A DNA stretch of 64,000 bases from Bartonella queenslandensis. GTDB lineage: Bacteria; Pseudomonadota; Alphaproteobacteria; Rhizobiales; Rhizobiaceae. Shown one piece after another: positions 8,333 to 60,014 of the stretch. A program made the translations under genes and the position numbers. Every line of letters begins with the position of its first letter. Within the stretch, counting starts at the first letter, position 1. The notes under the pieces were generated by a model. That model searched no databases, was not told the origin of the DNA, and saw only the letters and a list, made by a program, of their open reading frames with translations. The stretch is taken from assembly GCF_018155095.1 (NCBI RefSeq), contig NZ_NAAI01000006.1:1-64000 (forward strand), written 5' to 3'.

Positions 8333-8340
8333 TCCTCCCC

Positions 8341-43504: not shown

Positions 43505-44533
43505 TTATAGCTCACCTTCGTATCTAAAAAGAGCAGCTCCCCATTTCAATCCGGTAGATATAGTACTCATTACAACCTCATCGCCTAATTGGATTACGCC
43601 GCGTTCTGTCAGAATCTGAAGCGATAGTAAAGGATCGACGCAACCAACATGTCCTAACTCTGCCAATAGGCTAAGGTTACTTTTTTCAATGGGTATATCG
43701 GTGCGCAGACACAATTTTTCAATGCTCTGTATGCCTTCAAGGGTATGGAGTAAAAAGGGTATGCCATGCCGTTTATTACTTTTTGCTATAATATTCCGAA
43801 TAATATTCACGCTATTTTCTATACGTAGATTCAAAAAGGCTATTAAATCTGCTGAAGAAAAACGATAGTTTTCCATCATCCTTTCACGCCCCAACTTATC
43901 ATATCGGCTATCTCGCTCTTTAGGTAATAGCGGCAAAAATCCCCCACCATATTCAATGCGCATCATATCAACGTAGCGACAGTCAGAAATATCCTCCACA
44001 GCGATATATCTAAATCCACCCTGCCCTTTTCCTCGAACAGAGTTTCCGACCACTGCAACCACTGCACCATCACTCAATACGGCATTCATCAAACCAAAAC
44101 GGTCTTGGTGTTTATCACTGATGCGCTGAGCCAGCACCACTAACCCCTTTTTTCCTACAGCCAATTCAGCTGCAAGTAAAGCAGCTTGCCTCCAAACTGT
44201 AACGGCGCTACCGCATCCTTCGATTAAATTAACTGTACGAATCCATTGACAATGTAATTCGCTCCCTACCTGACAGGCAAAATCAATACCAATAAAATCA
44301 GGTATACCAGAAAATCCAGCAACAATAAATCCTATATCTTTTTCTTGAATATTGGCTTTTTCTAGAGCTTTTCGTGCAGCAAATGCAGCCATTTCTCTTA
44401 CGCTCTGCCGACTAGTCCAGAAATAGTTATAACCCGCTCGTTTTAGTGCGTCTATTTGCAAGCCATTGGGATGCGTCACATGATTTAGGCTCGCTCTTTG
44501 CAATAAGGTATGTTCTATGCTTAAAATTTTCAT
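43505..44533 (-). CDS. KAS III-like acyltransferase, candidate D-alanyl transferase
   Basis: The 342-residue thiolase-fold protein is related to FabH. The nucleophile is Cys107 in NLIEGCGSAV. A His lies in LLHTLEG (His263). Where FabH has the catalytic Asn, this protein has His295 (ELGHVGCVDPL). Such changes are known in KAS III relatives that make esters or amides rather than C-C bonds (CerJ-type). As the last gene after an adenylation enzyme and a carrier protein, it would move the carrier-bound aminoacyl group, probably D-alanine, to the hydroxymethyl of griseoluteic acid. The start overlaps the carrier gene by 4 bases. The role is inferred. Confidence 0.8.
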   Translation of the reverse strand: MKILSIEHTLLQRASLNHVTHPNGLQIDALKRAGYNYFWTSRQSVREMAAFAARKALEKANIQEKDIGFIVAGFSGIPDFIGIDFACQVGSELHCQWIRTVNLIEGCGSAVTVWRQAALLAAELAVGKKGLVVLAQRISDKHQDRFGLMNAVLSDGAVVAVVGNSVRGKGQGGFRYIAVEDISDCRYVDMMRIEYGGGFLPLLPKERDSRYDKLGRERMMENYRFSSADLIAFLNLRIENSVNIIRNIIAKSNKRHGIPFLLHTLEGIQSIEKLCLRTDIPIEKSNLSLLAELGHVGCVDPLLSLQILTERGVIQLGDEVVMSTISTGLKWGAALFRYEGEL

Positions 44534-44769
44534 TCTGCATCTAACTGTTTAAAAAAAGAAAGTTTAACCTCGCCGATCTGCTTACTGAGTAACTGCGCTA
44601 AATCAATTTTTATTCCATTACATCTTTGCAGCTTTTCAACTATTGCCATTGCCAAAAGCGAGTTTCCCCCTAGCTCAATGAAATTATCACTCAGTCTGAC
44701 ATCGTTTTCTTTCAATAAGTTTTTTATTTCTGCCACTAATGGCGATAATTCAACTTCATCATGCGTCAT
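44530..44769 (-). CDS. acyl/peptidyl carrier protein
   Basis: This 79-residue four-helix carrier protein has the phosphopantetheine attachment site Ser37 in FIELGGNSLLAM. It would hold the amino acid activated by the adenylation enzyme encoded just upstream (11-base overlap) and present it to the KAS III-like transferase. GGNSLL is the form seen in peptidyl carriers rather than fatty-acid ACP (DSLD). Its activation requires the Sfp-type transferase at 59250. Confidence 0.88.
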   Translation of the reverse strand: MTHDEVELSPLVAEIKNLLKENDVRLSDNFIELGGNSLLAMAIVEKLQRCNGIKIDLAQLLSKQIGEVKLSFFKQLDAE

Positions 44770-46243
44770 AGTACCTCCTTTTTATTTCTTCACGATCAGT
44801 TTTACCGCGAGAACTCATTGGCCACTCGCTTTGCGGAATAATTATATAACGGGAAGGGCGTAGCCACGGCGATAGTTTTATGCTAGCGCTTCTCAGCTCG
44901 CGCGTAGTCAAAGTAATACCACTCATTACGTTTACGCAAGCTATAAGCATTGCTGGTCCTTCTGCTTTCTCTTCCAGCCAAACTACCGCTTCACAAACGC
45001 CAAAAATAGATTGTAAAAATTTCTCAATCTCTAGCGGATCAACACGAAAACCATTAATTTTGTAATACCCTCCGCTGCGCCTCATAAAATGCCAAATACC
45101 ATTATCATCGCATCGGCAAATATCTCCGGTTAAATACCCTGAATCTAAAGGCTTTAATCCATCATATCCTAAAAATACTTGAACTCCTTCTAATTTCAGA
45201 TTACCGGTTTGCTCCGTTATTTTATCTTCAAGAGAAAAGCTCATATCCGAAAAAGGTTTTCCAATTGGCACCGTATCGTAAACAAAGTCTTTATTACTTA
45301 TAAACCAAGCAGAACAAAAAACTGTTGCTTCTGAAGGACCATAAGTATTTATCAGTTGCACTTTGCATTCGTCTAGAATATCAAAAAAGGGGAGTATAGT
45401 GTTAGTGGTCAACTTTTCTCCACAAAGTACTATTTTTTGTAGCATCAGCTCATTAAACTGCTGCAAGGTTCTGTAAACGAACAAATAGCGAAATTCTGAA
45501 GGTGTTACTGATAATAGATGTACTTGGCATTTTTTTAATATCGTCCACGCTAAAGTTGGATCACGTTTTGCCTTTTCATTAATCACTACGAGACAACCAC
45601 CGTGACTAAGTGTCCCAAACAATTCCCAGATAGAAAAATCAAAAGAGAGATCATGAAACCATGACCAAGTTAGTCCTGTAGGAATTGCCAGCTCTTTGTG
45701 GCAGTTTTGCAAAAATGCGTTTAACTGCTCCACGTGAATCGGCACCAGCTTAGGATCGCCGGTGGTACCGGAGGTACGAACACAATAGACTTCGTCAGCA
45801 GAAATATCACAACTTTCATTCTCAGGAATTAACCATAATTGCCACACACCGACCTTAACGCTTTGTAGCTCACTAAACTCTGTCAAATCAGAACAGATAC
45901 CTATACACCTGCTGCGAATTGTAAATTGATACTTTTGGTTAGCTGACATGGTAGCCGGCACCGATATAAAGGAAATTCCAGATAGTAAACAGGCTAGTAC
46001 CATTACATAGAGCTCGCTAGAACGGCAGCTATCTAAAGCTAAACGCTGTCCAGCACCCAACCCAACTTCTTTAAATTGCTTTACAATTTGCCAAGCGCTA
46101 TCAAACATTTGCTTATATGTTAACTGGTTATAGCCATCCCATACTGCTAATGAATCTGGGCTATCACTTAAGATGCGGATCAAAACTGGATTGAGAAATG
46201 CTAACTTTGTTTTGACCCTGCTGTTCTTTGCTTGTCGTATCAT
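44759..46243 (-). CDS. stand-alone adenylation enzyme (NRPS A-domain, DltA-like)
   Basis: The 494-residue protein has all core motifs in order: A3 RTSGTTGDPKLVPI, A5 NTYGPSEATVF, A7 YLTGDICR, A8 GGYYKINGFRVDPLEIE and A10 SRGKTDREEI with the catalytic Lys. Single-domain enzymes of this size that load separate carriers include DltA, the D-alanine-activating ligase. Given the ehp-type context, D-alanine is the likely substrate, giving an alanyl-AMP and then a thioester on the 44530 carrier. Substrate specificity was not deduced from the pocket. Confidence 0.85.
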   Translation of the reverse strand: MIRQAKNSRVKTKLAFLNPVLIRILSDSPDSLAVWDGYNQLTYKQMFDSAWQIVKQFKEVGLGAGQRLALDSCRSSELYVMVLACLLSGISFISVPATMSANQKYQFTIRSRCIGICSDLTEFSELQSVKVGVWQLWLIPENESCDISADEVYCVRTSGTTGDPKLVPIHVEQLNAFLQNCHKELAIPTGLTWSWFHDLSFDFSIWELFGTLSHGGCLVVINEKAKRDPTLAWTILKKCQVHLLSVTPSEFRYLFVYRTLQQFNELMLQKIVLCGEKLTTNTILPFFDILDECKVQLINTYGPSEATVFCSAWFISNKDFVYDTVPIGKPFSDMSFSLEDKITEQTGNLKLEGVQVFLGYDGLKPLDSGYLTGDICRCDDNGIWHFMRRSGGYYKINGFRVDPLEIEKFLQSIFGVCEAVVWLEEKAEGPAMLIACVNVMSGITLTTRELRSASIKLSPWLRPSRYIIIPQSEWPMSSRGKTDREEIKRRYYDA

Positions 46244-46313
46244 TATTCTTCTCTCACTTTTGCATATTATTTCAGCTAACTAACTATCATCGTACAGCTC
46301 CTCAGTATGCGTA

Positions 46314-47471
46314 TTAAAACATCCGTGTCAAAGAAGCAGGATCATCTCCTAAGGCCATCAGCCCAACCAATTCTTCAGGCACCAATTTGGCGAAGCCGCC
46401 GTGTCGAGCTCCTACGTTTATATCCCGCCAGATTTTTTCTAGCGGGTTACCTTTTTCAAAAGATGAAGAGCCGCGTAACCATAATAAATCTTGTACTATA
46501 TCGACGCAACCACGCATAATTTGTGTTGCTCGCCCACGTATTGCAACCCGCTCACCCACTGTCAACGTTCGCCCCTCATACGCCGCTGTATCAATAACAC
46601 TAGCATTGTATTCTGCAGCTCGTATATGTAGATCGAGTACAGAACAAAGGCGTCCTATCTCATAACGCGCCGGTCCAGAGGAGTACATAGAGCTGTAAGT
46701 ACTACCAGTTATAGGCACACCAAACTCCTCTAATACCAATGCTAAAGCACTCTCTGTTGCTCCTAACAATGTAGCTGGAAGACAATTCATCAGTACACCA
46801 GTGAAGTAGCGCACATAAGAGAGGCCACTGCTAGGATAGGATGCGGTAAGACCAGCTAACACGGGGTCATATGGCGTAACAAAAGAATCTGGAATATGGA
46901 TATTCTCCGCCTGTATAGTTACGCTTTGAGTAGCAATCAGCCCTATAGATCTCCACTCATCCACTACTTTTAGCTGATGAGAGGGTACTAGAACGACTTG
47001 GACATTTTCCTCTATAGTTTCAGCCAAGCAAAAAAAATACGAAGAATAAGGATATCCAGAGGCATATTTCCATATACCACTCAACAACCATCCATCCCCT
47101 GAAGAGGAGCGCTGCAAGCTACCTGGACGCCCTAAGACCATAGCTATCATGGAATTTACGTTCATATCAGTACAGACCGCATCTGATAGACAAAAATTGG
47201 CGCGCATTAACCAAGCAGAATTAGCTACACTAACCAGCCAACCCAGTGATGCATCAGTTTTTCCCAGTTCACGGCATACGACTACTAATTCACTTATCGT
47301 GCCTGCGGGTTGCAAACTACTTTCATCGAGAATACGTAATAAAGCGGATTTTTGTAGTGCTTCAACTGCACCGGATACCTGTTGATCTTGCTGCTTCTTT
47401 TCAGCCCAACTAGACAATAAGACGGCAATCGGTTCATGCCAGCACTGAAAACATTTTTTTGGTTTAATCAA
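46314..47471 (-). CDS. acyl-CoA-dehydrogenase-like flavin monooxygenase
   Basis: The start is set at TTG 47471 (385 residues) because GGAGGA lies 6 bases upstream; the frame is open to 47528. It overlaps the upstream SDR by 8 bases. The fold is that of acyl-CoA dehydrogenases (GKTDASLGWLVSVANSAW; SGIWKYASGYPYSSYFFCLA; RGRATQIMRGCVDIVQDL). In particular it matches the HsaA/HpaB-like group D, which hydroxylates aromatic rings with reduced flavin. It lacks an obvious catalytic Glu for dehydrogenation. In this pathway it could hydroxylate the phenazine ring before O-methylation. Confidence 0.75.
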   Translation of the reverse strand: MIKPKKCFQCWHEPIAVLLSSWAEKKQQDQQVSGAVEALQKSALLRILDESSLQPAGTISELVVVCRELGKTDASLGWLVSVANSAWLMRANFCLSDAVCTDMNVNSMIAMVLGRPGSLQRSSSGDGWLLSGIWKYASGYPYSSYFFCLAETIEENVQVVLVPSHQLKVVDEWRSIGLIATQSVTIQAENIHIPDSFVTPYDPVLAGLTASYPSSGLSYVRYFTGVLMNCLPATLLGATESALALVLEEFGVPITGSTYSSMYSSGPARYEIGRLCSVLDLHIRAAEYNASVIDTAAYEGRTLTVGERVAIRGRATQIMRGCVDIVQDLLWLRGSSSFEKGNPLEKIWRDINVGARHGGFAKLVPEELVGLMALGDDPASLTRMF

Positions 47472-48255
47472 AAGCAGTCCTCCACATATGAATTTTTTCT
47501 TGTATTTGCGTACAGAGAAAATCAACAAATACTGATGAAGTAGCGAGCATTACCGGCATCGTAGGGGTATCAAACATTTTCCAAAAAAAAGGGAGACTGG
47601 CTTGTGGTTCCTCAATGTTAAAACCGCACATCGCTCGTTTGCTTAGAGTTTCACAGTTGTAGGCTGCGGAAATTGCCTGACGTTGAGCAGAAGTTGTGGC
47701 CCAGCCTGTACGGTAAGGGCCCGGCTGTATAATTCCAACTTGTATGGCTGTGTCGTCCAATTCTAAGCGTAACGTTTGCCCCATCGCTTCAATTGCATAT
47801 TTACTCATCTGATACGCTCCTAGTAATGGCCAACACGCCAAACCACTCATACTAGAAACCAAAAGAATACGTGCTTCTGTCAATTGCCGCATCAGCGGCA
47901 ACATTGGTTTAATTATATTCAATGTTCCTTCTACATTTGTGGCAAACTGCTGTCGCAGATGTTCTGTAGAGAGATCCTCTAGGGTTCCAAATTGGGCATA
48001 TCCGGCGGCCGCAACTATTCGACTGGGGGTTCCTACTTTTTGTGCCAATTTTGGTAATATAACCGCCAAATATTGCTCATCACGCACATCTGCGACGCAA
48101 GGGATAAAGTTACCTTTGTAGAGATTTTCCATCTCTCGTGCAACCTTAAAAGAACGGGTAACACCAATCACGCGCCCCTCCCGCTCACGAATAATTGCGT
48201 CCGTCCAACAACGCCCTAAACCGCTTGAACAACCACTAATAAGCCAAGTATTCAT
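47464..48255 (-). CDS. short-chain dehydrogenase/reductase
   Basis: This 263-residue classical SDR has the NAD(P) loop ISGCSSGLGR (residues 5-14), NNAG-like AAAGYAQFG, the catalytic Ser in LLVSSMSG, and YxxxK in YQMSKYAIE. It probably reduces the aldehyde made by EhpF/EhpG (6-formylphenazine-1-carboxylate) to the hydroxymethyl group of griseoluteic acid. That step is inferred from pathway logic. It is located between the exporter and the monooxygenase in one operon. Confidence 0.8.
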   Translation of the reverse strand: MNTWLISGCSSGLGRCWTDAIIREREGRVIGVTRSFKVAREMENLYKGNFIPCVADVRDEQYLAVILPKLAQKVGTPSRIVAAAGYAQFGTLEDLSTEHLRQQFATNVEGTLNIIKPMLPLMRQLTEARILLVSSMSGLACWPLLGAYQMSKYAIEAMGQTLRLELDDTAIQVGIIQPGPYRTGWATTSAQRQAISAAYNCETLSKRAMCGFNIEEPQASLPFFWKMFDTPTMPVMLATSSVFVDFLCTQIQEKIHMWRTAFD

Positions 48256-48279
48256 TATTTCTATTCTCCAATAACGAAT

Positions 48280-49680
48280 TTAGATAATTTTCTGACTGCG
48301 TGAGAGCCACGCCCCCAAACTTAAGCAGAAGGCTATAAGCATGAAGCAACAAAATGCTGCAAAAGCTACCGCGGATGATGTTAGATTTAGTGCCAAACTT
48401 TCCGTAGAAATACGATAAAATCTGACCAAATGATCAAACAACAGGGCAACTATCACGCTACCTAGTGCACTCATCACTTGACGTATCACATTAAAGAACG
48501 CCGCGGCTCGCCCAACAGTAGTGAAAGAAGCGCGCCCAAAGGCGATATTTGCCAACGGTGCGAAAGCTAGACCAGTACCAATCCCCGCCAGCAACATGCC
48601 CGCTATTATAATGATAAATCCACTATTTACGCTAAAGCTAACAAACCCGGCACTACCGATAATTAACGTGGCAAGGGCAAAACAACCCATTCCTACACGG
48701 ACGATGATTTCCGGTACGATTTTGTCTGAAAAGTAGCCAGCAAACGGTCCCACAATCGCATTAACTAAAGCTATAGTAATCATAGCAAAGCTAATTTCTA
48801 CTGGACCAAACAACATCCGCAGTTCAAATAAAAATGCCAACGGCAAATAAAAGGCTGTTAAACTAAATCCAAGTAACCCAGATATAAGACAGGCACGAAG
48901 AAAAGGACGATCCCGCCAAAGATCTGGAGATAGCAAGTAGTGTGTATCGTATTTCAAATCATACCGGATAATCAAAACCATTACTAAGATACCTAACAGA
49001 AAAAAAATGCTACCTACCAGTGCTGCAGCGCCACCATTGCTCAAAAACTCTAAGCCCAACACGATTGCAATCAAAGCGAGTCCCGATAACCCACTAATCA
49101 CAAGCTCTATTGTTTTAGCCCCATTTCCCGTAACAGTAGGCAAACAGCTAAAAGCAAGTAAAAGCGCTAGTAACGCGATGGGAATATTAATCCACATCAC
49201 CCAACGCCAGTCTGCAACTTGTAAAATAGCCTGTGTGATGACCGGTCCAGTCGCTGTGGCAATTCCGGCTACTGCTCCCCAAATACCCAAAGCAGCGCCC
49301 CGCCCACCTTTGGCAAAAAGGATAGAAATAAATGCCATACTTTGCGGCGCTAATAATCCAGCCCCAATTCCCATGATAGCTCGTCCGGCTATCACATGTA
49401 ATAACGTCTGTCCCAAACCACTAATTAATGCACCTATTGCTAAAATCACCAAAGCGCTGCTAAGTACTACACGGCGATTAAATGCATCACCTACTCGGCC
49501 GCCTAAAAGTAAAAAACCGGCGTAGATAATTAAATAAGCGTTATTTATCCAAGCAGCGCTCCCCGGCGAAACCTCATATTTTCTAATTATTGTGGTATAA
49601 ATAAGTGGCACTGTTGTGGTATCCATCATCACAACAAAAAAACCAAGACAGAGACCAAAGAATGCAACTTTTTTTTTCAA
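48280..49680 (-). CDS. MFS drug exporter (DHA2, 14-helix type)
   Basis: The 466-residue inner-membrane transporter has about 14 predicted helices. The loop 2-3 motif is GGRVGDAFNRRVV and motif C is GAVAGIATATGPVITQ, placing it with the EmrB/QacA proton antiporters. Its place in the operon makes it the likely exporter of the phenazine product, giving self-protection alongside the EhpR-like protein. Direction and substrate are inferred. Confidence 0.85.
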   Translation of the reverse strand: MKKKVAFFGLCLGFFVVMMDTTTVPLIYTTIIRKYEVSPGSAAWINNAYLIIYAGFLLLGGRVGDAFNRRVVLSSALVILAIGALISGLGQTLLHVIAGRAIMGIGAGLLAPQSMAFISILFAKGGRGAALGIWGAVAGIATATGPVITQAILQVADWRWVMWINIPIALLALLLAFSCLPTVTGNGAKTIELVISGLSGLALIAIVLGLEFLSNGGAAALVGSIFFLLGILVMVLIIRYDLKYDTHYLLSPDLWRDRPFLRACLISGLLGFSLTAFYLPLAFLFELRMLFGPVEISFAMITIALVNAIVGPFAGYFSDKIVPEIIVRVGMGCFALATLIIGSAGFVSFSVNSGFIIIIAGMLLAGIGTGLAFAPLANIAFGRASFTTVGRAAAFFNVIRQVMSALGSVIVALLFDHLVRFYRISTESLALNLTSSAVAFAAFCCFMLIAFCLSLGAWLSRSQKII

Positions 49681-49695
49681 AACAAAATTTCCTAT

Positions 49696-50385
49696 TTATT
49701 GGGATAAAACCTGTAACACCACATGCCAGCATGGTAAGCGAGTAAAACCAGCATTATCAGTTAATATAATTAGATTTTTCCTTTCACAAAAATCCGTAAT
49801 AGCATCTGCATTACCTTTATATTCCACTCTCGATACGGAATTAATACTCCACCCTGTAGCTTCCGCATTGTAACAAATTTCTGAAAGTTGAATTGCGAGT
49901 GGTAACGGCATGCCATATTTTGCAGGAGCAAAAGTGATTATATGCAAGCGTGTTTCATTGTGAGAAAGTCTTCTCATCTCTTGCAGATAGGGAATACGTG
50001 TATTAAAAGGAATAGCATGATATAGAGCTGAATCAAGAATTAGATCAAAAGATTCATCCAGTTTTGTAGCACATACATCCCTTACGAGAAAGCGAATATC
50101 ACCTTTCATGCTCTTTTTGCAGCACATAATTGCAACAGCTGCACTATCAATTGCTGTAACTTGAAAACCTCTCTGCGCTGCAGCTTCAGCATTATGCCCG
50201 AGTCCACATCCTACATCAAGTAACTTACCCGATTCTGCTTGGTCTAATATAGTGCAAACCACAGGCTGTGCGTGACCTATATCCCACGGCACCGATTTTA
50301 TCTCGGCACTTGTTAGCAGACTTTTTCCTTTGTATACACCTTGAAAATCAGCTTGCTCGTACTCATTGTTATTGATTTTGTTCAT
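49696..50385 (-). CDS. SAM-dependent methyltransferase
   Basis: The 229-residue class I methyltransferase has motif I LLDVGCGLGHNAE, the motif II acid in VTAIDSA, and FDLILDSALYHAI. It would transfer a methyl group from S-adenosylmethionine. In a griseoluteic-acid pathway it is the natural candidate for O-methylating the ring hydroxyl to the 9-methoxy group. The small stand-alone size and the operon position support a tailoring role; regiochemistry is unknown. Confidence 0.82.
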   Translation of the reverse strand: MNKINNNEYEQADFQGVYKGKSLLTSAEIKSVPWDIGHAQPVVCTILDQAESGKLLDVGCGLGHNAEAAAQRGFQVTAIDSAAVAIMCCKKSMKGDIRFLVRDVCATKLDESFDLILDSALYHAIPFNTRIPYLQEMRRLSHNETRLHIITFAPAKYGMPLPLAIQLSEICYNAEATGWSINSVSRVEYKGNADAITDFCERKNLIILTDNAGFTRLPCWHVVLQVLSQ

Positions 50386-50442: not shown

Positions 50443-51864
50443 TTAGGTTATTCCTGTGCTAATAGCATCCGGCGCTCTAACGCGATGCCCACGTGTTATC
50501 ATTAGAAATTCAGCTAAATATCCATCATGAGGAACTTGCGGATGCATCCACACCGTAGGTATCTGACCGATATAAAGGTTGCTTACGGTAGGTATCTTTC
50601 TTATACGCTCAATTAATTGTATATCACCCGATGCAACTGTTATCACGAGAGCTGGAGCAAGCGTATTAAGATCGTCGCTTCGATTAAAAGAAGCAAACGT
50701 TACTGCGGGAACAGGTAGTTCCAACTGCATTAACGAGTCAGTCATTGATGGCGCCAGCATCACAAGGGGCGTGACCTGATATGTGTTGTCGGCCGCATTA
50801 AAAACTTGTGGCTCTTCTATTAAAAACTGGGCATATTTTTCTGACTGCGCCCGCCACCAGCTGAAACGTTGAGAAGACAAACGCGTCAACCAAATGTTGC
50901 GCTGTATTTCATCTCGTAATTTCCATGAACACCAGTGGTAGAACGCCTGCGCGAAGCTTTCGGCGTCACCCTCTACCAAGATGCTACTGGCACAAACACA
51001 GGCTGCACCGCCTAACCCAACTACCGATTCAAAAACAAGTTGCAAAGCATCTTCCTGTCGATAGTCAGCGCCGATAATAATTTTTGAACGCCCAGGGCCT
51101 TGTACCAATACATCGTTGCGAAAAGAAAAGTGTGTCACAGTAGTATCGCCACCATACAGCAGACTGAGATCTGCACTTTCCGTCATGGCATCCACTACCT
51201 CGTGATCACAAGGCAATAACGCTACATATTGCTTTAGCCCAGCAGCAACCATAGCTGCAACCAGCCGCTGTGCGGTTAGCGGCTCACGTTCCGACGGTCG
51301 TAGAACTACGCGATATCCTAACGCTACAGCTTGTGGCCAGAGCGCATGCACACCAGTGCCATTACCGGGTGTAACTACTGCTAAGACATCTCCACGTCGT
51401 ACACTCTGTGCACAGCCCAAACTCAACGCCTCAGCATCAGTTTCCCTTGATACGCCACGGGATATGCCTAACCAAGCAAATGCTAACGCCTGAGAAGTAG
51501 CCTCTGCTATTTTAGTGCTAGCATTTTCGATTACTTGCTGTGGCAGCCCCGTTAATGCGCTCACTTGTGTGTTATACTCTGCTAGCGTTAGCCCGCAAAG
51601 AGTGGACTCCGTAAAAAGCTCGCCTGCCCGCCTCAATGCCTCTTCGCGAGCAACCTCACTAAGTTCTGGAGCATGACGCAAGTGCGTTATCAAGTAGTGT
51701 GCGAAGGCTGCTGGTGCTTGCACCAGCATTGCCACAGGTTTTTCCGCGATATCATAGATAACCTTACGTTGGCCAAAAATTTGATTGCGTAATGGCGTAA
51801 TAGCCTTAATTATGGGAAGAACATTCTCACCAGAATAATGTTTTTTTTGAACAGCATCAGACAT
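50443..51864 (-). CDS. ehpG: LuxC-like acyl reductase (EhpG type)
   Basis: The protein has 473 residues from ATG 51864, which overlaps the ehpF stop (TGATG). The aldehyde-dehydrogenase-like fold is visible: nucleotide-binding LAVVTPGNGTGVHALWP, RPSEREPLTA, and the nucleophile region GLGGAACVCASS (Cys289 or Cys291). LuxC enzymes reduce acyl-AMP or thioester substrates to aldehydes with NADPH. In Pantoea agglomerans, EhpF and EhpG are proposed to convert phenazine-1,6-dicarboxylate to 6-formylphenazine-1-carboxylate; the same step is inferred here. Confidence 0.82.
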   Translation of the reverse strand: MSDAVQKKHYSGENVLPIIKAITPLRNQIFGQRKVIYDIAEKPVAMLVQAPAAFAHYLITHLRHAPELSEVAREEALRRAGELFTESTLCGLTLAEYNTQVSALTGLPQQVIENASTKIAEATSQALAFAWLGISRGVSRETDAEALSLGCAQSVRRGDVLAVVTPGNGTGVHALWPQAVALGYRVVLRPSEREPLTAQRLVAAMVAAGLKQYVALLPCDHEVVDAMTESADLSLLYGGDTTVTHFSFRNDVLVQGPGRSKIIIGADYRQEDALQLVFESVVGLGGAACVCASSILVEGDAESFAQAFYHWCSWKLRDEIQRNIWLTRLSSQRFSWWRAQSEKYAQFLIEEPQVFNAADNTYQVTPLVMLAPSMTDSLMQLELPVPAVTFASFNRSDDLNTLAPALVITVASGDIQLIERIRKIPTVSNLYIGQIPTVWMHPQVPHDGYLAEFLMITRGHRVRAPDAISTGIT

Positions 51865-52964
51865 CAATAAATGCCCTCAATCACGGGTCGTCCCTCGCTT
51901 ATTAATTGCGGTTTAATATCTGCCAGTCGGTCACCTACATATCCCGATACTCCAGGTAACCTGATGGCAGTGTCCCGTTCCACCACCCGAGGATAAAAAG
52001 CATATGGTGACAAATGAGTAACAATCACAGTTCCTCGCTCACCGTACTCTACTAGTTGCCGCGTATAACTATCTACTACCTCATAATGAATGAAAGGAGA
52101 AAAACTATCATAGATAATATGCTCACTCTCAAGTGTAATAAGTAGAGAACGCGAAACGGCTAACGCAGAAGTGCTGCCGTAGCTCGCGCTGAACTCACAT
52201 TTAGGTAGAATTTCGCTAGCAATAAACTTCACTTCATCCAGATTCAATTCTGTCCCACCCAGAGTGATTTGGGCTAGTGAATGCTTCATTTGCATTACCA
52301 CATCTTGTTGCTTTAATAGTTCACGAAGTATGGGAAGCGTGGTCACAAGAAAACGTATGTCCTGAGTAAATAACGTATTCTGCACTTGCTGTGCTAGATG
52401 TTGAGTATAACGCCGCACGCCAATTGTATCTCCTTCGCTAAGCAATCTTTTTACCCACCGAGGATCAATATCAATAGAAAAAAACAAACCGCCCAGTTGT
52501 TCGGCCCGTTCTCTATTAATTGCACCAACTATATGTGGTCCAGTAGGAATAGCAGCAAGCGTATTACCTGTAGGACGTTCTAGACGATGCTGATAACCAG
52601 ATGTACGCCAAGTGATCAGTGCTTTGATCCACTCATCATAAGCAACTACATATTTTGGAGTACCAGTAGTGCCTCCACTTTCATAAACACGGGGTACAAA
52701 ATGTTGGGGTATACCGCGGGGTATCAATTGTGAAACTGGGACGTGGCGCAATTGACCTGAGATATCAGTAAACAATTTAAGATCATTCAGCGTATTGACA
52801 GCAGAGAGAGGATCAAAATTTAAACTCCCCCGCATATCTAACCAAAAATCACAACCAGTTTCTGGCGAAAAGTGCCAACGCATCAAGATCTGCACAAATT
52901 TGTTGCTGTCCCCAGTGGCAACTGTTTGCATAAGAGTTTCTATATCAGGGCTGTAATTTTTCAT
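51864..52964 (-). CDS. ehpF: EhpF-like adenylating enzyme (LuxE/ANL family, no C-terminal domain)
   Basis: The start is placed at ATG 52964 (366 residues), which gives the size of Pantoea EhpF (about 41 kDa). Earlier ATGs at 52976 and 52979 are possible, and the frame is open to 53111. The ATP-binding loop is YESGGTTGTPKYVV and the second motif is SASYGSTSALAVS. It ends at about the position where typical ANL enzymes would begin their C-terminal lid, a known oddity of EhpF. It would activate one carboxylate of phenazine-1,6-dicarboxylate as the adenylate for EhpG. It overlaps phzG by 20 bases. Confidence 0.85.
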   Translation of the reverse strand: MKNYSPDIETLMQTVATGDSNKFVQILMRWHFSPETGCDFWLDMRGSLNFDPLSAVNTLNDLKLFTDISGQLRHVPVSQLIPRGIPQHFVPRVYESGGTTGTPKYVVAYDEWIKALITWRTSGYQHRLERPTGNTLAAIPTGPHIVGAINRERAEQLGGLFFSIDIDPRWVKRLLSEGDTIGVRRYTQHLAQQVQNTLFTQDIRFLVTTLPILRELLKQQDVVMQMKHSLAQITLGGTELNLDEVKFIASEILPKCEFSASYGSTSALAVSRSLLITLESEHIIYDSFSPFIHYEVVDSYTRQLVEYGERGTVIVTHLSPYAFYPRVVERDTAIRLPGVSGYVGDRLADIKPQLISEGRPVIEGIY

Positions 52965-53574
52965 ATTTCCATCCATCATCCGTGCGTGTATAAAATAGTC
53001 GTTTATGAATACGCGAAGCCGCAGCAGACCAGAACTCATAGCTGTTAAAAGTAATTTCCCATACCACAAAACGCTCCGGGCGAGGTAGTTTCCCTGTATT
53101 TTGCAATTCAAGGATACTGGTTAACATAGCATGAAAATCGTGGAGTGGTTTACTCTGATGAGAAACAATTGAGACAGGATCATAGGCTGCGCTTCGGCTT
53201 TGCCATATCTGCTCGGCAACATGATCAGGCAACAGCGCAACATCACCAGTCAAGCTGACTTGGCGCCCTAGTTCACGCCAATAAATGTGGCAAGAAGCGG
53301 TTTTAGTGGCACAAAAATCTAAACTTTTACGGCTACAAATATGCGTGGCACACCACATTTTCTCGCCATCTAAGTGTACAGGAAAAATTGTACGCATGGA
53401 CACTATACCACTATTGTTATGGCTAGCAACTGTCCAAGCATCTGGTTCACGAATCTTCTTTTCGTGAGCCAACTGTAACCAGCTGGTTAAGATGTTATAT
53501 GGCGCAGCAGGTGGGTTCTCATACTGAAGAAAAGGTAAATCTATCATGCCGCTCAGAGATTCAAGTCTATTCAT
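52945..53574 (-). CDS. phzG: PhzG, FMN-dependent oxidase
   Basis: The 209-residue protein has the pyridoxamine-phosphate-oxidase fold (SMRTIFPVHLDGEKMWCATH; SRKSLDFCATKTASCHIYW; GRQVSLTGDVALLP). PhzG uses FMN to oxidise the dihydro- and tetrahydrophenazine intermediates to the aromatic phenazine carboxylate. The C-terminus (RFVVWEITFNSYEFW) carries the family end pattern. It lies between phzF and ehpF in the operon. Confidence 0.9.
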   Translation of the reverse strand: MNRLESLSGMIDLPFLQYENPPAAPYNILTSWLQLAHEKKIREPDAWTVASHNNSGIVSMRTIFPVHLDGEKMWCATHICSRKSLDFCATKTASCHIYWRELGRQVSLTGDVALLPDHVAEQIWQSRSAAYDPVSIVSHQSKPLHDFHAMLTSILELQNTGKLPRPERFVVWEITFNSYEFWSAAASRIHKRLFYTRTDDGWKYEKLQP

Positions 53575-53614: not shown

Positions 53615-54478
53615 TCAGTTACAACTTCCTTGTAGCCAAGCGCAGCAATCTGAAAACAATTTTACTTGGCCAGATAGCTCAACATGACTTATTTTTTCGC
53701 CTTCTTCCTTAATCTCGCCATACATCACACAACGACGGTTTAGCAAAATTCCTTGTTCAATTATTAAACGTTCATTAGTTTTTAGTTGTCCACATTTTAG
53801 TAAATGTAAAGCTATTGGACCAACAACAGATCCAGTTCCTGCATCTTCTTTTACTCCATAAGCTGGTGAAAACATGCGATTTTCTACTCGAGTTCCATCC
53901 CATGTAAAACAATTCACGGCTAGATTCTCTAATTCGGCTAACATCTCATGGTTAGGACGTAGAGTATGCAATGTCGTAACACAGTCTACGGAAATAAGCA
54001 CATGTCTAGCGCCTGCATCATACATTACCACCGGTAATACACTGTGCTTTAGTCCGAGAGCTTTCAGAAGGTATTTTTCTGCGCTAAAAGGTATTTTTTT
54101 GGCAATCGGAACGTCAATTTTAACCGTACTTAAGGTGGTACTTTGATGTTCCACAGACACTTTCACTGCTCCGATATCGGTATGGAAAATAAATGCTTTA
54201 AGCCCGTAACGGCGAGAAAATGCACTGGCGGTGCCCATCAACGGATGCCCAGCAAAAGGCAACTCATTAACCGGTGTAAAAATACGCACGCGGGCCTCTC
54301 CTTTATGAGCCTTTTTACTAATAAATGTACTTTCAGATAATTGTAGCTGACGCGCCAAACCCTGCATCACTGACTCCGAAAATGTTTCAGACTCATAAAA
54401 AACAGCTACTGGATTTCCTTCTAAAGGCGAACTGGTGAAAGCATTTAATACGCTATACTCAATAGATGATTTTCCCAT
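53615..54478 (-). CDS. phzF: PhzF, trans-2,3-dihydro-3-hydroxyanthranilate isomerase
   Basis: The protein has 287 residues; family members have about 280. The catalytic Glu is in the LSESTF motif (Glu49, equivalent to Glu45 of Pseudomonas PhzF). The family glycine motif NELPFAGHPLMGTASAF is present, as is DAGTGSVVGPIALHLL in the second half. PhzF isomerises DHHA to the reactive ketone that dimerises into the phenazine ring. The gene starts 2 bases after the phzE stop. Confidence 0.93.
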   Translation of the reverse strand: MGKSSIEYSVLNAFTSSPLEGNPVAVFYESETFSESVMQGLARQLQLSESTFISKKAHKGEARVRIFTPVNELPFAGHPLMGTASAFSRRYGLKAFIFHTDIGAVKVSVEHQSTTLSTVKIDVPIAKKIPFSAEKYLLKALGLKHSVLPVVMYDAGARHVLISVDCVTTLHTLRPNHEMLAELENLAVNCFTWDGTRVENRMFSPAYGVKEDAGTGSVVGPIALHLLKCGQLKTNERLIIEQGILLNRRCVMYGEIKEEGEKISHVELSGQVKLFSDCCAWLQGSCN

Positions 54479-54480
54479 TA

Positions 54481-54882
54481 CTATACCACTTCTGAATAGT
54501 TTTTTTGTAAAAGAGGGGTTACAAAACTATCCAGAATCCTTGGCCCATCAATAGTTAGTATGGATTCTATATGAAACTGAACAGACGCGAATGTTGGAGC
54601 TCGTAGTGCATGCACTTGGTCCCTTCCTCTCTCACTATAAAGAGTAATTCCTTGTTGCTGCAAAGCAAACACTTCCTGAGCATTAGCTTCAGCACAGAAA
54701 GTGTTATAAAAGCCTACGGTTTCCTCATGCTCATCAAGCATTATAGTTTTTTGAACTCCTTGGTTTGGAGGAGAAAGACGGATAATAGGCAAACCAAATT
54801 CCAAACAAAGCAACTGATGACTAAGGCAAACTGCAAAGAATGGTTGCTGAATTGTCTTCATATGTATAATGGCTTCGCGCAT
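54481..54882 (-). pseudogene. phzE: PhzE glutamine amidotransferase domain (3' part of frameshifted phzE)
   Basis: This open frame of 133 codons (readable back to about 54998) is the C-terminal GATase of PhzE: GPGPGNP, the nucleophile AVCLSHQ, GVQKTIMLDEHEETVGFYNT, and the His-Glu pair QFHIES. It would supply ammonia from glutamine. It is out of frame with the upstream part. Whether it is translated alone is doubtful, because no good ribosome-binding site precedes its ATG. Confidence 0.85.
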
Positions 54883-54941
54883 AGCGTTAACACGTTTGTC
54901 ATCACTGTCGAGCGGATTACCAGGGCCAGGACCTGCAACAA

Positions 54942-56387
54942 TTAAGTCCCATCCTTGCAGATTGACCCTGCTCTGGACCTTTTCAACATGAGCAAAGCCC
55001 CCAGTGCGCTGAACAATGTTTGAAGCATGGCAGTAAAAGTGTCATTGCCATCAAGAATCAAGATCTTTTTGTGTGCAAAGGGGTACTGACGTTGGTAACG
55101 TTGTTGCGGATTAGCAAGCCAAAACTGCGAAATGTTGTTATTTCGACGGACTAGAACAGGCTGAATAAGTCGATGATTGTTTAAATCTTCGCTAATTGGG
55201 ACAACTTCCGTTTTTTTATCCGCAAGCAGGGTAGAATCTTGAGTAAGCGCGGTGTAGAGTGCTTGCGCCTTAATTCGTGTCTCTTCCGCTTCCTTTTCCG
55301 GCTCGGAGTCTCGCACTATGGTTGCACCCACGCCAATCTCTACTTTACCATCTGCAGATATTTCCGCAGTACGTATGCAAATCGCAGAATCTAATTTAGA
55401 GGACTCAAGCGAATTATCAACCAAAGCCACCACACCGCTATAATATCGACGCCCTTCCGGTTCATAACGCGCAATTACTTCGCAAGCTTGCTGAACAGGG
55501 CTACCGGTAACCGTTGGTGCAGGTAATGTTTCGCGCAAGACATCTAGCACACTAAAACATGTTCTACCCCGCAGAAAGTATTCGGTATGAATAATTTGAC
55601 TCAACTGCTTAAGATGCAAATCGCTAACTTGTGCTCCGAGTGCGCATAACTTCGACATCACTTTTAATTCTTCATCAACTACCATATGGAGCTCATTGAT
55701 TTCCTTTAAATTATTAAGAAACTGGCGAAGTTGATCAATCATTAAACCTTGTTTCGGATATTTGAATGTGCCGCTGATCGGATTCATGCAAACTTCACCA
55801 TCCCGAAGCGAAACCTGTAGCTCTGGTGAGGCGCCAACAAAAGCCTGCTCTCCAGTACTAATCAGAAAACACCAGTACGCCGATACTTCGGTTTGTAAAA
55901 GCCGTCGATATAGACTAAAAAGTTGAGCAGAGTGGTAGTCAACCAGCCTAGTGTGCAATTTACGGTGAAGCACAAAATTAGAACCTAAACCTTCACCAAT
56001 TTCGTGAGTAACTAGATTTTTAACTCGCTGACCGAACTGAATATCGTCAAGGTTAAAATGTGTGTCTCGAACTATGATTGGTGTGTTCGGCAATAGATTG
56101 AGTGCCTGTGGTAATGGCACCCATTGGCGACTAATAACAGGCATATTAAGAATGGGAGTTTTATCGTCTACTGCCTGATAACCACGTCGTGCCACCTGAC
56201 AAAATGGCACTAGAATTAGTTTTTCATGACTGTCAGTAAATTTAGTGGAAAGTGCCTCCTGCAGGGAATGTGTTTCCCCTCTCAATAACTGTAGCACTTC
56301 AAGTTTCTCGGTTGACACATCTGGGCGATATAGTAAGGCAAAAGGCTGTTCAGGTTGCGCCACAATTTTTGCTAACAAATCACTCAT
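54942..56387 (-). pseudogene. phzE: PhzE anthranilate-synthase-like domain (5' part of frameshifted phzE)
   Basis: PhzE converts chorismate and glutamine to 2-amino-2-deoxyisochorismate (ADIC), the first committed step. This 481-codon frame has the chorismate-binding domain intact (NPISGTFKYPKQG; TVTGSPVQQACEVIARYEPE; RYYSGVVALVD; CIRTAEIS) and the start of the GATase (KILILDGNDTFTAM). At the run of five G (plus 54998-55002) the frame changes to a nonsense tail. Adding one G restores LGGFAHVEKVQ and joins it to the GATase, giving 635 residues like Pseudomonas PhzE. It overlaps phzD by 8 bases. Confidence 0.9.
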
Positions 56388-57009
56388 ATTTTGTTACCTC
56401 GTTAACTGAAAGCACTCGAGCGCAGTTGTTTGCCAGGTAATCTATAGTTTGTTGATGACCAACAAGAGAAAAATCAGCAACCGCATCTGCAATCACAAAT
56501 GGTTTAATATCTCGAGTAAAAGCCTCAACTGCAGTGGCAAAAATTCCCACCGAAGCATAAATTCCCGTAATTATCAGAGAATTACACTGACGTTCTTCCA
56601 ATCTCTCAGCTAAAGAAGATTTATAAAACGCGCTATAACGCCACTTGGTTAATAGTGTATCCTCTGGACAAGGCGCAAGCTCAGCAATAATCTTGCGATC
56701 TTCTTCTGTGGTACGCATGCCTGGCCCCCATAGATCATTAAGCAAACCACGCTCTTGCGGCGTCATCCCACCAGGTTGTGCACTATAAAATACTGGAACA
56801 TGTTTTTTTCTCGCCCATTTTAAAATTTTTGCGATCGAACAAATGACTGGCACCGCAGAACTATCAGGCAGAGCATGAACAAAATAACTCTGCATATCGT
56901 GAACTAACACCGCACAGTAATCTGGTTCTATAGTCCAGCATAATGGCTGCTTAACAGGGATAGTCAGTTCTCCAAAACAATAAGATTCAGATTCCAATGT
57001 TCTATGCAT
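56380..57009 (-). CDS. phzD: PhzD, isochorismatase-type hydrolase
   Basis: The protein has 209 residues, the normal family length. PhzD cleaves the vinyl ether of ADIC to give DHHA. The catalytic Asp38 (VLVHDMQSYF) and Lys122 (LLTKWRYSAF) are at the same numbers as in Pseudomonas PhzD, and ITGIYASVGIFATA and FVIADAVADFS follow the family. It is the second gene of the operon and appears fully intact. Confidence 0.95.
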   Translation of the reverse strand: MHRTLESESYCFGELTIPVKQPLCWTIEPDYCAVLVHDMQSYFVHALPDSSAVPVICSIAKILKWARKKHVPVFYSAQPGGMTPQERGLLNDLWGPGMRTTEEDRKIIAELAPCPEDTLLTKWRYSAFYKSSLAERLEERQCNSLIITGIYASVGIFATAVEAFTRDIKPFVIADAVADFSLVGHQQTIDYLANNCARVLSVNEVTKYE

Positions 57010-57194: not shown

Positions 57195-57614
57195 TCAGGA
57201 CTGAATTCCAAAACGCTTAATTGTAGGAATATTGAACCCTAAAGCCTTTAATTGAGCGATTGGATTCATAAACTCACGATTACGAACAATTAAGCCATCC
57301 CGTAACTCAAATGAGTGGATAAAGTGATTTTTATAGTAATTTTGAGGATAACCAAGAAAACAAATTAATCCACGACCATCACATTCTACCCAAATGTGAT
57401 TAGGGTTATCCGTTGTGAATATTTGAACATTATACCATTCCCAATCAGGAAAACACTTTAAAGACCATACAGCATGCTTTTCTAGATTCTCAATGCCGCG
57501 TATAATAATCGGCTCTCCAGTTTCCGTGGTCCATAGCCCACTCTCGCCTTCATCGACAAAAAGTTTATGCCTCTCTAAACGTGCTTTACCACGAGTTGAC
57601 GACAAATAAGCCAA
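57195..57614 (-). CDS. phzB: PhzA/B-like condensing protein, 5' end interrupted
   Basis: The product strongly resembles PhzA/B (HKLFVDEGESGLWTTETGEP; HAVWSLKCFPDWEWYNVQ; WVECDGRG; FIHSFELRDG; REFMNP), the small ketosteroid-isomerase-fold protein that assists the condensation of two PhzF products. The natural frame extends upstream to GTG 57671, 6 bases from AGGAGG, and encodes the expected N-terminal helix (DLQTLREKNRETVLAYL). Codon 4 of that frame is TGA (57660-57662). Only an internal TTG (57614) remains, without a ribosome-binding site, so expression may be low or absent. Confidence 0.85.
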   Translation of the reverse strand: MAYLSSTRGKARLERHKLFVDEGESGLWTTETGEPIIIRGIENLEKHAVWSLKCFPDWEWYNVQIFTTDNPNHIWVECDGRGLICFLGYPQNYYKNHFIHSFELRDGLIVRNREFMNPIAQLKALGFNIPTIKRFGIQS

Positions 57615-57671
57615 AACAGTTTCACGATTTTTTTCCCGCAGAGTCTGTAAATCTTTATCTCATTGACACAC

Positions 57672-58322: not shown

Positions 58323-58712
58323 GTGAGTAATATCCCTAGTTATTCTGTCACCCCAAACCTACAGTTGGTATACGTATCAAATGTAGAACATTCTATCACT
58401 TTTTACAAATTCATCTTCAAGAAAGAGCCTGTATTCATATCACCACGCTATGTTGCATTTGCTTCTTCGGGTGATGCGCTCTTTGCACTCTGGTCTGGGG
58501 GCGACGCACCTAAGGAAAATGTGCCTCGTTTTTCAGAAATCGGCATTATGTTGCCTACTGGAGAAGATGTAGACAAGCTATATGCGGAATGGCAAGAGCA
58601 AACCACCGTTGAGATAAATGTTTTGAAAGAACCGTATACCGACGTATTTGGGCGTACCTTCCTCATCAAAGATCCTGACGGCCATATTATTCGTGTTTGT
58701 CCACTGGATTAA
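58323..58712 (+). CDS. ehpR: EhpR-like phenazine-binding resistance protein (glyoxalase/bleomycin-resistance fold)
   Basis: The protein has 129 residues from GTG 58323 behind a perfect AGGAGG. It has the paired beta-alpha-beta modules of the vicinal-oxygen-chelate superfamily (VYVSNVEHSITFYKFIF; EPVFISPRYVAFASSGD; FGRTFLIKDPDGHIIRV). By recollection it is very similar to EhpR of Pantoea agglomerans Eh1087, which binds griseoluteic acid and protects the producer by sequestration. Divergent transcription from the biosynthetic operon fits self-immunity. Metal-dependent enzymatic activity is not expected. Confidence 0.9.
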   Translation: MSNIPSYSVTPNLQLVYVSNVEHSITFYKFIFKKEPVFISPRYVAFASSGDALFALWSGGDAPKENVPRFSEIGIMLPTGEDVDKLYAEWQEQTTVEINVLKEPYTDVFGRTFLIKDPDGHIIRVCPLD

Positions 58713-59249
58713 AAAGTCTTAGATTTGATTTTTAATTGCCTGAATTGTAATAATTATCTACTTTTAAAATCTATAAGCTATGTACTATAGAGACTTATTG
58801 GCTTTGGGGTTAGTTGATGTTATTGTATGGACAATAAATTAGTATTTTAAAGGCTTGCGTTATAGGATTGAGACACGAAAACCGCAAGATGGGGGGTGAG
58901 GTGGAATCACCTAATCTTATTAAGCGGTTTACATTGCTCCAGTTTACTATTTTCAGTACTAGTTATGATCCCCGCACTTGTAATCTTTAATTTTACCTTG
59001 TCTTGTTCTTTCTCGACGTTGCAATGCTTAGCTCTAAATTAGATCTTCTCCAATTTGCAACTCTAAACGAATTAAGCCAAGTTAGGTATGCGATTAGCCT
59101 CATTTACAAAGCTAGGAATCAGGCTGTTGTGTTTATGAAAACTTTCACACACACTAGGGCAAACTATGCGACTGACCTTTTATCCTATACCCGCTTTCTT
59201 TAATTTAGAAACAAAACAGCCTCTAAAATAATTAACCATGAAATGAGAT
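58713..59249. other. non-coding stretch between ehpR and the PPTase gene
   Basis: No supportable gene was seen. A possible hairpin (GGTGAGGTGGAATCACC) lies near 58896-58912. A 66-codon frame at 59003-59203 lacks a ribosome-binding site. Confidence 0.4.
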
Positions 59250-60014
59250 ATGCATAAAATCCAAATTTGGTACAGCCCACTGGCTAAAATTGACCAGCAG
59301 CTTTATTTGCGCTACTTAGCGCTCTTGTCGCCATGTGAACATAAACGATTTAGACAGTTCAAAGCAAAATCAGCTCAGAATGAGTATCTTGTAGGAAGAG
59401 TCCTACTCAGGACCATTTTATCTAAAATGGCGCCTATTGCGCCCCAAGAGTGGCAATTTATTAGTAATAAATATGGCCGTCCCGAAATTACTCCGACACA
59501 AAAATGGGCAGTACTTGGACTAAACTTTAATATTTCTCATAGCTGCGGCTTAGTTGTCTTAGCAATCAGCAACGATTGCTGCATTGGCATAGATGTAGAA
59601 GCAATAACCCGTCCAATAAATGCAAAAGAGCTAGCTTATCGCTGCTTTACATCCACAGAAGCAAATTTTATTTGTGACGTTAACGGCAAAAAACGCTTAG
59701 AACGTTTTTATACCATTTGGATATTAAAAGAAGCCTACAGTAAAGCTTTGGGCTTGGGCTTATCATTACCTTTTGATAGTTTTTCTTTCGACCTCTCCGA
59801 GACACAGCACAACATCATAAAGCTTACTAGCCAACACCCAAGTTCTGCACTATGGCGCTTCGCAAGATGGAAAATAAAATCCAACCACCAAATCGCATTA
59901 GCTATTCTTCCACAGCACAGCTCTTTTAAGATAAAGTTTTTCAAAAGCTTACCGCTTATAACACAGAAAGAAGATTTAAAACCAAAACTTTTAACAAAGT
60001 GGCCTCCGGATTAA
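59250..60014 (+). CDS. Sfp-type 4'-phosphopantetheinyl transferase
   Basis: The protein has 254 residues. Sfp-family motifs are present: FNISHSCGLVVLAI, CCIGIDVEAI (metal-binding Asp/Glu) and FYTIWILKEAYSKALGLGL. It would transfer phosphopantetheine from CoA to Ser37 of the carrier protein at 44530. The C-terminus is extended by about 25 basic residues. Although 15 kb from the carrier gene, it lies inside the same bracketed segment and supports a complete, self-sufficient tailoring system. Confidence 0.88.
   Translation: MHKIQIWYSPLAKIDQQLYLRYLALLSPCEHKRFRQFKAKSAQNEYLVGRVLLRTILSKMAPIAPQEWQFISNKYGRPEITPTQKWAVLGLNFNISHSCGLVVLAISNDCCIGIDVEAITRPINAKELAYRCFTSTEANFICDVNGKKRLERFYTIWILKEAYSKALGLGLSLPFDSFSFDLSETQHNIIKLTSQHPSSALWRFARWKIKSNHQIALAILPQHSSFKIKFFKSLPLITQKEDLKPKLLTKWPPD

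What the first reader, a model, noticed from the sequence alone, without database searches (positions are those of the whole stretch)
43505..60014. Griseoluteate-type phenazine antibiotic cluster in a Bartonella-like genome
Phz B, D, E, F and G, EhpF, EhpG, an SDR, a flavin monooxygenase, a methyltransferase, an A-domain, a carrier, a KAS III-like transferase, an MFS pump, an EhpR-like protein and a PPTase lie together. The set matches each chemical step to D-alanylgriseoluteic acid, known from the plasmid-borne ehp cluster of Pantoea agglomerans. Bartonella live in blood and arthropod guts with few competitors, so an antibiotic cluster is unexpected. It might serve competition in the arthropod gut, or redox or iron chemistry. 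No phzC (DAHP synthase) is present here, so chorismate would come from core metabolism.
Basis: partly seen in the sequence, partly recalled or inferred. Interest (0 to 1): 0.95.

Follow-up and report, generated by a model that had tools for sequence, protein, structure and literature searches.

The report
Bartonella plasmid-borne phenazine antibiotic cluster, broken

Summary
All 15 genes of the Pantoea agglomerans D-alanylgriseoluteic acid (AGA, ehp) locus that I compared lie at 43505-58712 in the same order (57-79% protein identity); 13 have open frames along the match. The cluster sits behind trbI of a Bartonella-type MOBP/RepC conjugative plasmid. That plasmid has lost or broken much of its transfer gear and lies in the chromosome between repC repeats 92% alike; a same-genus genome has the near-empty site. 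The phzA/B family occurs in 1 of 71 genomes of the genus; so does the marker domain of the phosphopantetheinyl transferase beside the cluster. Two gene trees put the genes among gammaproteobacterial AGA clusters, so transfer is likely. The two broken genes show as much codon constraint as the intact ones, so the breaks are recent or are assembly errors; in a chromosomal control 3 of 94 genes were broken. My reading: a captured antibiotic plasmid whose cluster was probably silenced recently at its first committed step. Whether other strains hold an intact copy is open.

The parts
43505..44533 (-). KAS III-like protein, predicted to transfer the alanyl group
   Evidence: Pfam ACP_syn_III_C 3e-10; 67% to Pantoea orthologue; weak KAS III matches in PDB
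44530..44769 (-). stand-alone carrier protein (GGNS motif)
   Evidence: Pfam PP-binding 6.7e-9; 57% over 60 aa to Pantoea
44759..46243 (-). amino-acid adenylation domain, predicted to load alanine
   Evidence: AMP-binding 6.9e-39; 59% to Pantoea; NCBIfam AA-adenyl-dom 178 bits and DltA 136 bits, both under cut-off
46314..47471 (-). flavin-dependent monooxygenase of acyl-CoA-dehydrogenase fold
   Evidence: Acyl-CoA_dh_2; XiaF 5lvu E 6.4e-27; 65% to Pantoea
47464..48255 (-). short-chain dehydrogenase/reductase
   Evidence: adh_short 6e-28; 74% to Pantoea
48280..49680 (-). MFS exporter (EhpJ-like)
   Evidence: MFS_1 2.2e-40; 63% to Pantoea
49696..50385 (-). SAM methyltransferase
   Evidence: Methyltransf_25; 65% to Pantoea
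50443..51867 (-). EhpG-like aldehyde dehydrogenase
   Evidence: Aldedh 4.7e-13; 59% to Pantoea plasmids
51864..52964 (-). EhpF, adenylating enzyme
   Evidence: 75% to the Pantoea orthologue; PDB EhpF 3hgu E 1.9e-183
52945..53574 (-). PhzG (FMN oxidase)
   Evidence: PNP_phzG_C; NCBIfam phena_PhzG 190 bits, under the 270 cut-off; 63% to Pantoea
53615..54478 (-). PhzF isomerase
   Evidence: PhzC-PhzF 2.8e-54; 74% to Pantoea
54481..56387 (-). phzE (ADIC synthase), split: synthase part 54942-56387, amidotransferase part 54481-54882 in another frame; the frame changes between 54966 and 55002
   Evidence: Chorismate_bind 2.1e-45 and GATase 1e-16 in separate ORFs; two-frame match
56380..57009 (-). PhzD isochorismatase
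   Evidence: Isochorismatase 1.2e-35; 68% to Pantoea
57195..57671 (-). phzB, with in-frame TGA at 57660-57662 behind an AGGAGG-type site; a downstream TTG would give 139 aa
   Evidence: PHZA_PHZB read-through match with 1 TGA; PDB 3ff0; sequence
58323..58712 (+). EhpR-like AGA binding/self-protection protein, divergent
   Evidence: 74% to the Pantoea orthologue; PDB EhpR 3sk1 E 1e-64
59250..60014 (+). Sfp-type phosphopantetheinyl transferase, not part of the Pantoea locus
   Evidence: ACPS and AASDHPPT_N; the AASDHPPT_N marker is in 1 of 71 genomes of the genus
42921..43015 (-). second copy of the trbI 3' end, far side of the insert
   Evidence: 88% to 60200-60294
60206..61507 (-). trbI/virB10 of the plasmid backbone; the cluster is inserted behind it
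   Evidence: TrbI 2.4e-63; inside a stretch 84% identical in DNA to B. krasnovii pOE11-1
37372..38630 (-). broken repC, left repeat; the right copy is contig C6 75274-76536
   Evidence: 92% repeat; RP-C 4e-36; stops and two frames

Best explanation
This is a D-alanylgriseoluteic-acid (ehp-type) phenazine cluster whose 15 compared genes keep the Pantoea order and which sits in a degraded, likely Bartonella, conjugative plasmid inside the chromosome; intact it would make, carry and export AGA, but phzE changes frame and phzB has a TGA near its start, so the host has likely stopped making it. Inferred route if intact: PhzE, D, F, B and G turn chorismate into phenazine-1,6-dicarboxylate. EhpF and EhpG then activate and reduce a carboxyl group (recalled from work on EhpF). 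The SDR, monooxygenase and methyltransferase finish griseoluteic acid. The A-domain, the carrier protein (armed by the linked PPTase) and the KAS III-like enzyme add D-alanine. EhpR and the MFS pump remove the product. Inferred history: a gammaproteobacterial AGA cluster entered a Bartonella plasmid behind trbI; the plasmid was captured at a chromosomal repC remnant; transfer genes decayed, and phzE and the start of phzB broke recently, leaving tailoring, self-protection and export genes open.
For: Collinearity 15 of 15 with the P. agglomerans pASB05p2 locus, 57-79% identity, and with two Photobacterium loci. Solved EhpF and EhpR are the best PDB matches. Two trees place EhpF and PhzE within the Pantoea/Pectobacterium AGA clade (EhpF: window with Pantoea 98/88; PhzE: inside a 100/99 clade, exact sister weak at 81/71). 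PHZA_PHZB in 1 of 71 genus genomes; in 397 genomes sampled from the order five match, this one at 240 bits and four at 20-26 bits. Plasmid backbone 82-84% DNA identity to plasmids of B. krasnovii, B. kosoyi and B. harrusi, and GC3 of four trb genes 0.20-0.27 against 0.28-0.40 in the cluster. Near-empty site in genus mate G051, where the flanking genes lie about 2.2 kb apart instead of 41 kb, with a 242-base repC match between them. Breaks. Of 31 pOE11-1 proteins 11 have no match in the element, and repC (both copies), traI, the second recombinase, trbL, one hypothetical and the end of trbG are broken or cut. Constraint: position-2 changes 0.08-0.27 against position-3 0.47-0.63 in all 16 gene pieces, with phzB and phzE within the range of the rest.
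Against: The two breaks rest on one draft assembly (41 contigs), and a base-call error cannot be excluded: the chromosomal control shows 3 of 94 genes broken, which could be true pseudogenes or errors. 2 of 15 broken in the cluster against 3 of 94 is suggestive only. phzB could start downstream of the TGA. Three chromosomal genes have GC3 of 0.28-0.41, so base composition sets the cluster apart from the plasmid genes but not from the chromosome. The near-empty-site genome G051 is given as 7% contaminated. The window's PhzE is a long branch. No product, transcript or second strain was examined. The chemistry of each tailoring step is from the Pantoea system, not tested here. The genus name comes from plasmid similarity and anonymous genus mates, not from a named record.
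Confidence: 0.62

Rival explanations
1. The cluster is functional: the two breaks are base-call errors or are bypassed (downstream start for phzB, separate or frameshifted synthesis of the two phzE parts), and the bacterium makes AGA.
For: 13 of 15 genes open; phzB and both phzE pieces as conserved as intact genes; exporter, EhpR and PPTase present; the phzE break lies beside a short G run; 3 of 94 chromosomal control genes also look broken.
Against: Two separate breaks fall in core genes; the surrounding plasmid is decayed; 30 of 30 near-full-length ABC-transporter domain matches in the genome have open frames (36 matches in all, none with a stop); the first usual start codon of the amidotransferase ORF lies after its GPGPG stretch; six GATase matches in the genome, one of them the phzE piece, include none that I could identify as a stand-alone TrpG/PabA (the others were not examined further).
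Confidence: 0.28
2. The cluster makes another phenazine (phenazine dicarboxylate, griseoluteic acid or another acyl ester), not AGA.
For: A-domain specificity is untested; DUF2165, reported downstream in all Pantoea, Pectobacterium and Xenorhabdus AGA clusters surveyed (PMC11350110, passages), is not found here.
Against: Pocket-region stretches FDFSIWELFG, LLSVTPSEFRY and NTYGPSEATVFCSAW are the same as in Pantoea; a Photobacterium genome with the collinear cluster gave no DUF2165 match either.
Confidence: 0.07
3. The contig is chimeric and the cluster belongs to a contaminant.
For: Draft assembly; repC repeats of 1.26 kb bracket the element.
Against: Bartonella-type plasmid backbone lies on both sides and the outer flanks match genus mates; contamination estimate 0.14%.
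Confidence: 0.03

Closest known systems
ehp (D-alanylgriseoluteic acid) cluster of Pantoea agglomerans, here plasmid pASB05p2 (NZ_CP046724.1)
   Same: 15 of 15 compared genes, same order, divergent ehpR; on a plasmid in both
   Different: 57-79% identity; host likely an alphaproteobacterium; phzE and phzB interrupted; no DUF2165 match; PPTase beside it; plasmid captured in the chromosome
AGA-type loci of Photobacterium arenosum and P. halotolerans (L005, L006)
   Same: 15 of 15 collinear genes; P. halotolerans also gave no DUF2165 match
   Different: 48-75% identity, more distant than Pantoea for each gene compared
Griseoluteate-like phenazine loci of an E. coli O170:H18 plasmid and two Serratia (L004, L007, L012)
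   Same: phz core, EhpF- and EhpG-like genes; the E. coli one also has a PPTase, 37% to the window's
   Different: EhpF 45-47%; other tailoring genes, own DAHP synthase in E. coli, no carrier or KAS III-like match in the stretches held
Bartonella RepC plasmids pOE11-1, pTLV-1 and pBHa (the first two typed MOBP)
   Same: Backbone of the element, 82-84% DNA identity over trb/tra
   Different: No phenazine genes in their tables; pTLV-1 carries another small-molecule cluster, pBHa a DNA methylase behind trbI

Membership tests
AGA/ehp phenazine cluster | phzB, D, E, F, G core without phzC, plus EhpF and EhpG | tested here: met
   DAHP synthase elsewhere
AGA/ehp phenazine cluster | methyltransferase, MFS, SDR, monooxygenase, A-domain, carrier, KAS III-like in the Pantoea order | tested here: met
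AGA/ehp phenazine cluster | divergent ehpR | tested here: met
   74% to the Pantoea orthologue, PDB EhpR E 1e-64
AGA/ehp phenazine cluster | all core reading frames intact | tested here: not met
   phzE frame change, phzB TGA; base-call error not excluded. This bears on whether this copy works, not on its kinship
AGA/ehp phenazine cluster | DUF2165 gene downstream (reported in all Pantoea, Pectobacterium and Xenorhabdus cases surveyed, PMC11350110) | tested here: not met
   0 matches in own genome, 1 in the Pantoea plasmid as positive control; also 0 in P. halotolerans, so I do not treat it as defining
AGA/ehp phenazine cluster | the published 16 ORFs (ehpA-O and R) one by one | tested here: inconclusive
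   compared with 15 annotated genes of pASB05p2, not with the Eh1087 record AF451953 itself; the one-gene difference was not resolved
AGA/ehp phenazine cluster | production of AGA | not testable with these tools
   needs LC-MS
Bartonella RepC/MOBP conjugative plasmid | RepC, ParA, TraI/J/K/L, TrbF/G/H/I in conserved order | tested here: met
   (repC and traI broken; ParA only 37% to that of pOE11-1)
Bartonella RepC/MOBP conjugative plasmid | complete transfer system | tested here: not met
   traG/virD4, traF, traD, the zincin-like gene, trbB-E and trbJ without match; traI and trbL broken or cut

The most novel reading that the evidence does not exclude
Bartonella conjugative plasmids are vehicles for antibiotic clusters. 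An intact AGA plasmid, travelling with its own carrier-activating PPTase into hosts that show none by the marker used here, circulates among blood- and arthropod-borne Bartonella and arms them against rivals in the arthropod gut; the window is one captured copy, working or only just silenced.
Probability: 0.25. Interest if true: 0.88.

Novelty: new member of a known kind. Interest (0 to 1): 0.62.

Why it matters
A 2024 survey reports AGA clusters from Pantoea, Pectobacterium and Xenorhabdus (PMC11350110, passages); this one is in a likely alphaproteobacterial genus thought to meet few competitors. It shows a transfer route (a Bartonella-type plasmid with a cargo site behind trbI), lies beside a likely carrier-activating enzyme of its own, and makes testable whether Bartonella use antibiotics in the vector. 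Its breaks offer a possible case of an antibiotic pathway being lost at the first committed step while self-protection stays open.

Tried and rejected
Mis-assembly was tested and found unlikely. A closer copy of PhzE or EhpF in the protein database: apart from the window's own protein, the best hits listed were 74% (EhpF) and 70% (PhzE), 120 listed in each search. Viral contigs with PhzG: no relative. Near DNA match in plasmids: none. DUF2165 elsewhere in the genome: no match, with a positive control. PPTase as part of other phenazine loci: among 10 loci held, only the E. coli one matched; the best of 25 other proteins found are 38-41% identical, from environmental sources. A stand-alone TrpG/PabA to replace the broken amidotransferase part: none identified. 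Promoter- and terminator-like sites in 57100-60250 were within about one sd or little more of shuffles (14 against 10.3, sd 3.3; 3 against 1.7, sd 1.4). The KAS III-like protein has only weak PDB relatives, so ester transfer is inferred. GC3 as a mark of foreign origin was dropped: three chromosomal genes overlap the cluster's range.
Full report
Check of the observation. ORFs at 43505-60014 match, by Pfam, a KAS III-like protein, carrier protein, adenylation domain, acyl-CoA-dehydrogenase-fold oxygenase, SDR, MFS pump, methyltransferase, aldehyde dehydrogenase (EhpG-like), EhpF (weak in Pfam, under its cut-off), PhzG, PhzF, PhzE in two pieces, PhzD, PhzB, an EhpR-like protein on the other strand and an Sfp-type PPTase. 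EhpF and EhpR hit their own crystal structures.

Comparison with Pantoea. A protein search of plasmids with the EhpG-like protein found 17 records, four of them P. agglomerans at 59%. The annotated locus of pASB05p2 is collinear with the window: 15 of 15 genes, from 56.7% (carrier protein, 60 aa aligned) to 78.8% (PhzB). The published operon is described as 15 ORFs ehpA-O plus ehpR, EhpA-E giving phenazine-1,6-dicarboxylate, the others converting it to AGA, EhpJ an MFS pump and EhpR a binding protein for self-protection (PMC3175449, passages read). I did not have the Eh1087 record itself and did not assign letters beyond F, G, J and R. Two Photobacterium loci are also collinear over all 15.

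Breaks. A Pantoea PhzE query matches C6 54966-56387 in one frame and 54493-55002 in another. The second ORF's first usual start codon (54882) lies after the stretch encoding GPGPGNP, so as called it lacks part of the amidotransferase domain. PhzB: the frame that starts at a GTG six bases behind an AGGAGG-type site meets TGA at 57660-57662; all that aligns to Pantoea PhzB residues 5-158 lies behind it and is open. A 139-residue product from TTG 57614 is possible. The other 13 genes are open along their match.

Are the breaks real? Control: of 265 ORFs from 400 kb of genus mate G006, 96 matched 200 kb of the own chromosome at 55% or more; 2 were partial and set aside, and 3 of the other 94 had a stop or frame change. 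Thirty near-full-length ABC domain matches out of 36 had open frames, and none of the 36 had a stop. Two of 15 in the cluster is more than that, but not decisive. All 16 gene pieces keep the coding pattern of differences (third position 0.47-0.63, second 0.08-0.27), and phzB, phzE_N and phzE_C keep 89%, 83% and 89% of the columns invariant in Pantoea and two Photobacterium, within the 81-92% of the whole set. So any break is recent against the time since divergence.

Vehicle. The DNA right of the cluster (60.2-67.7 kb of the contig) is 82-84% identical to plasmids of B. krasnovii, B. kosoyi and B. harrusi, and 41.1-42.2 kb, left of it, matches them too. The cluster lies behind trbI, whose last 95 bases or so are repeated on the far side (42921-43015 and 60200-60294, 88%). 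Since the two copies differ by about 12%, I infer recombination between related plasmids rather than a fresh target duplication. Of 31 pOE11-1 proteins, 11 have no match in the element, among them traG, traF, trbB-E and trbJ; repC (both copies), traI, the second recombinase, trbL, one hypothetical and the end of trbG are broken or cut. The element is bracketed by repC repeats (37372-38630 and 75274-76536, 92%). Left of it lie ExbB/ExbD-family genes, right of it a VirB4-type gene. In genus mate G051 (given as 7% contaminated) the two flanks are about 2.2 kb apart with a 242-base repC match between them, so capture by recombination at repC is the simplest history (inferred).

Rarity. PHZA_PHZB occurs in 1 of 71 genomes of the genus; 67 of the 71 are at least 90% complete and at most 5% contaminated. 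In 397 genomes sampled from the order, five match: this one at 240 bits and four at 20-26 bits, two of these over the cut-off. The PPTase marker PF22624 is also in 1 of 71. That marker rang in only 2 of 14 control genomes and not in E. coli, which has EntD (recalled), so other Sfp-like enzymes in the genus could escape it. The PPTase is not a near relative of any protein found (best 38-41%). That it came for the cluster's carrier protein is inference.

Origin. In the EhpF tree (40 rows) the window groups with Pantoea pASB05p2 and an unnamed sequence (98/88) inside an enterobacterial AGA clade. In the PhzE tree (26 rows) it lies inside the Pantoea/Pectobacterium clade (100/99), with the exact sister unresolved (81/71) and a long branch (0.43). 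The source group is thus likely Gammaproteobacteria; the donor is unknown. Base composition does not help: cluster GC3 is 0.28-0.40, four trb genes 0.20-0.27, but three chromosomal genes 0.28-0.41.

Literature. Searches of the open library for Bartonella with griseoluteic gave 0 papers, with phenazine 16 and with biosynthetic gene cluster plus antiSMASH 13; by title and abstract start none is about this cluster, and I did not read those papers. The AGA survey (PMC11350110, passages) lists 11 Xenorhabdus, 10 Pantoea and 10 Pectobacterium strains, does not mention Bartonella in its main text, and gives 43.7% GC for the Pantoea cluster, against 41.3% for the insert here. My own search also shows EhpF at about 60-65% in Photobacterium, Vibrio, Photorhabdus and Facilibium. 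The B. harrusi paper (PMC9414547, passages) relates its plasmid to that of B. krasnovii and has no mention of phenazine in its main text.

Verdict. The finding is right about what the cluster is and incomplete about its state. It works like, and by gene content belongs to, the AGA clusters; whether this copy still works is doubtful.

Noticed in passing
L017 (B. kosoyi pTLV-1) 6930-16969: The sister plasmid carries a different small-molecule cluster (adenylating ligase, ATP-grasp, MppP-like PLP enzyme, FAD oxidase, racemase-like, MATE pump; all but the pump under NCBIfam cut-offs), so this plasmid family has held at least two unrelated biosynthetic clusters.
   Followed up: partly
window 12893-13876 and 14231-15178: Two adjacent genes of the YopJ serine/threonine acetyltransferase family.
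   Followed up: no
window 40541-41050: Piece of trbL C-terminus built of about four 93-base direct repeats, 95-97% alike.
   Followed up: no
L013 17660-19990 (contig C6 81660-83990): Four similar short lipoprotein-like ORFs beside a VirB-type secretion operon; part of the DNA matches the EexN gene of B. harrusi pBHa.
   Followed up: no
window 42325-42863: ParE-type toxin gene with a likely antitoxin ORF between the insert and the recombinase remnant; a related DNA copy (71%) lies at contig C6 117041-117562.
   Followed up: no
G053:C57 (L041): Another genus mate has plasmid-like DNA (70% to window 39284-40457) at the same chromosomal site, hinting at repeated plasmid capture there.
   Followed up: no
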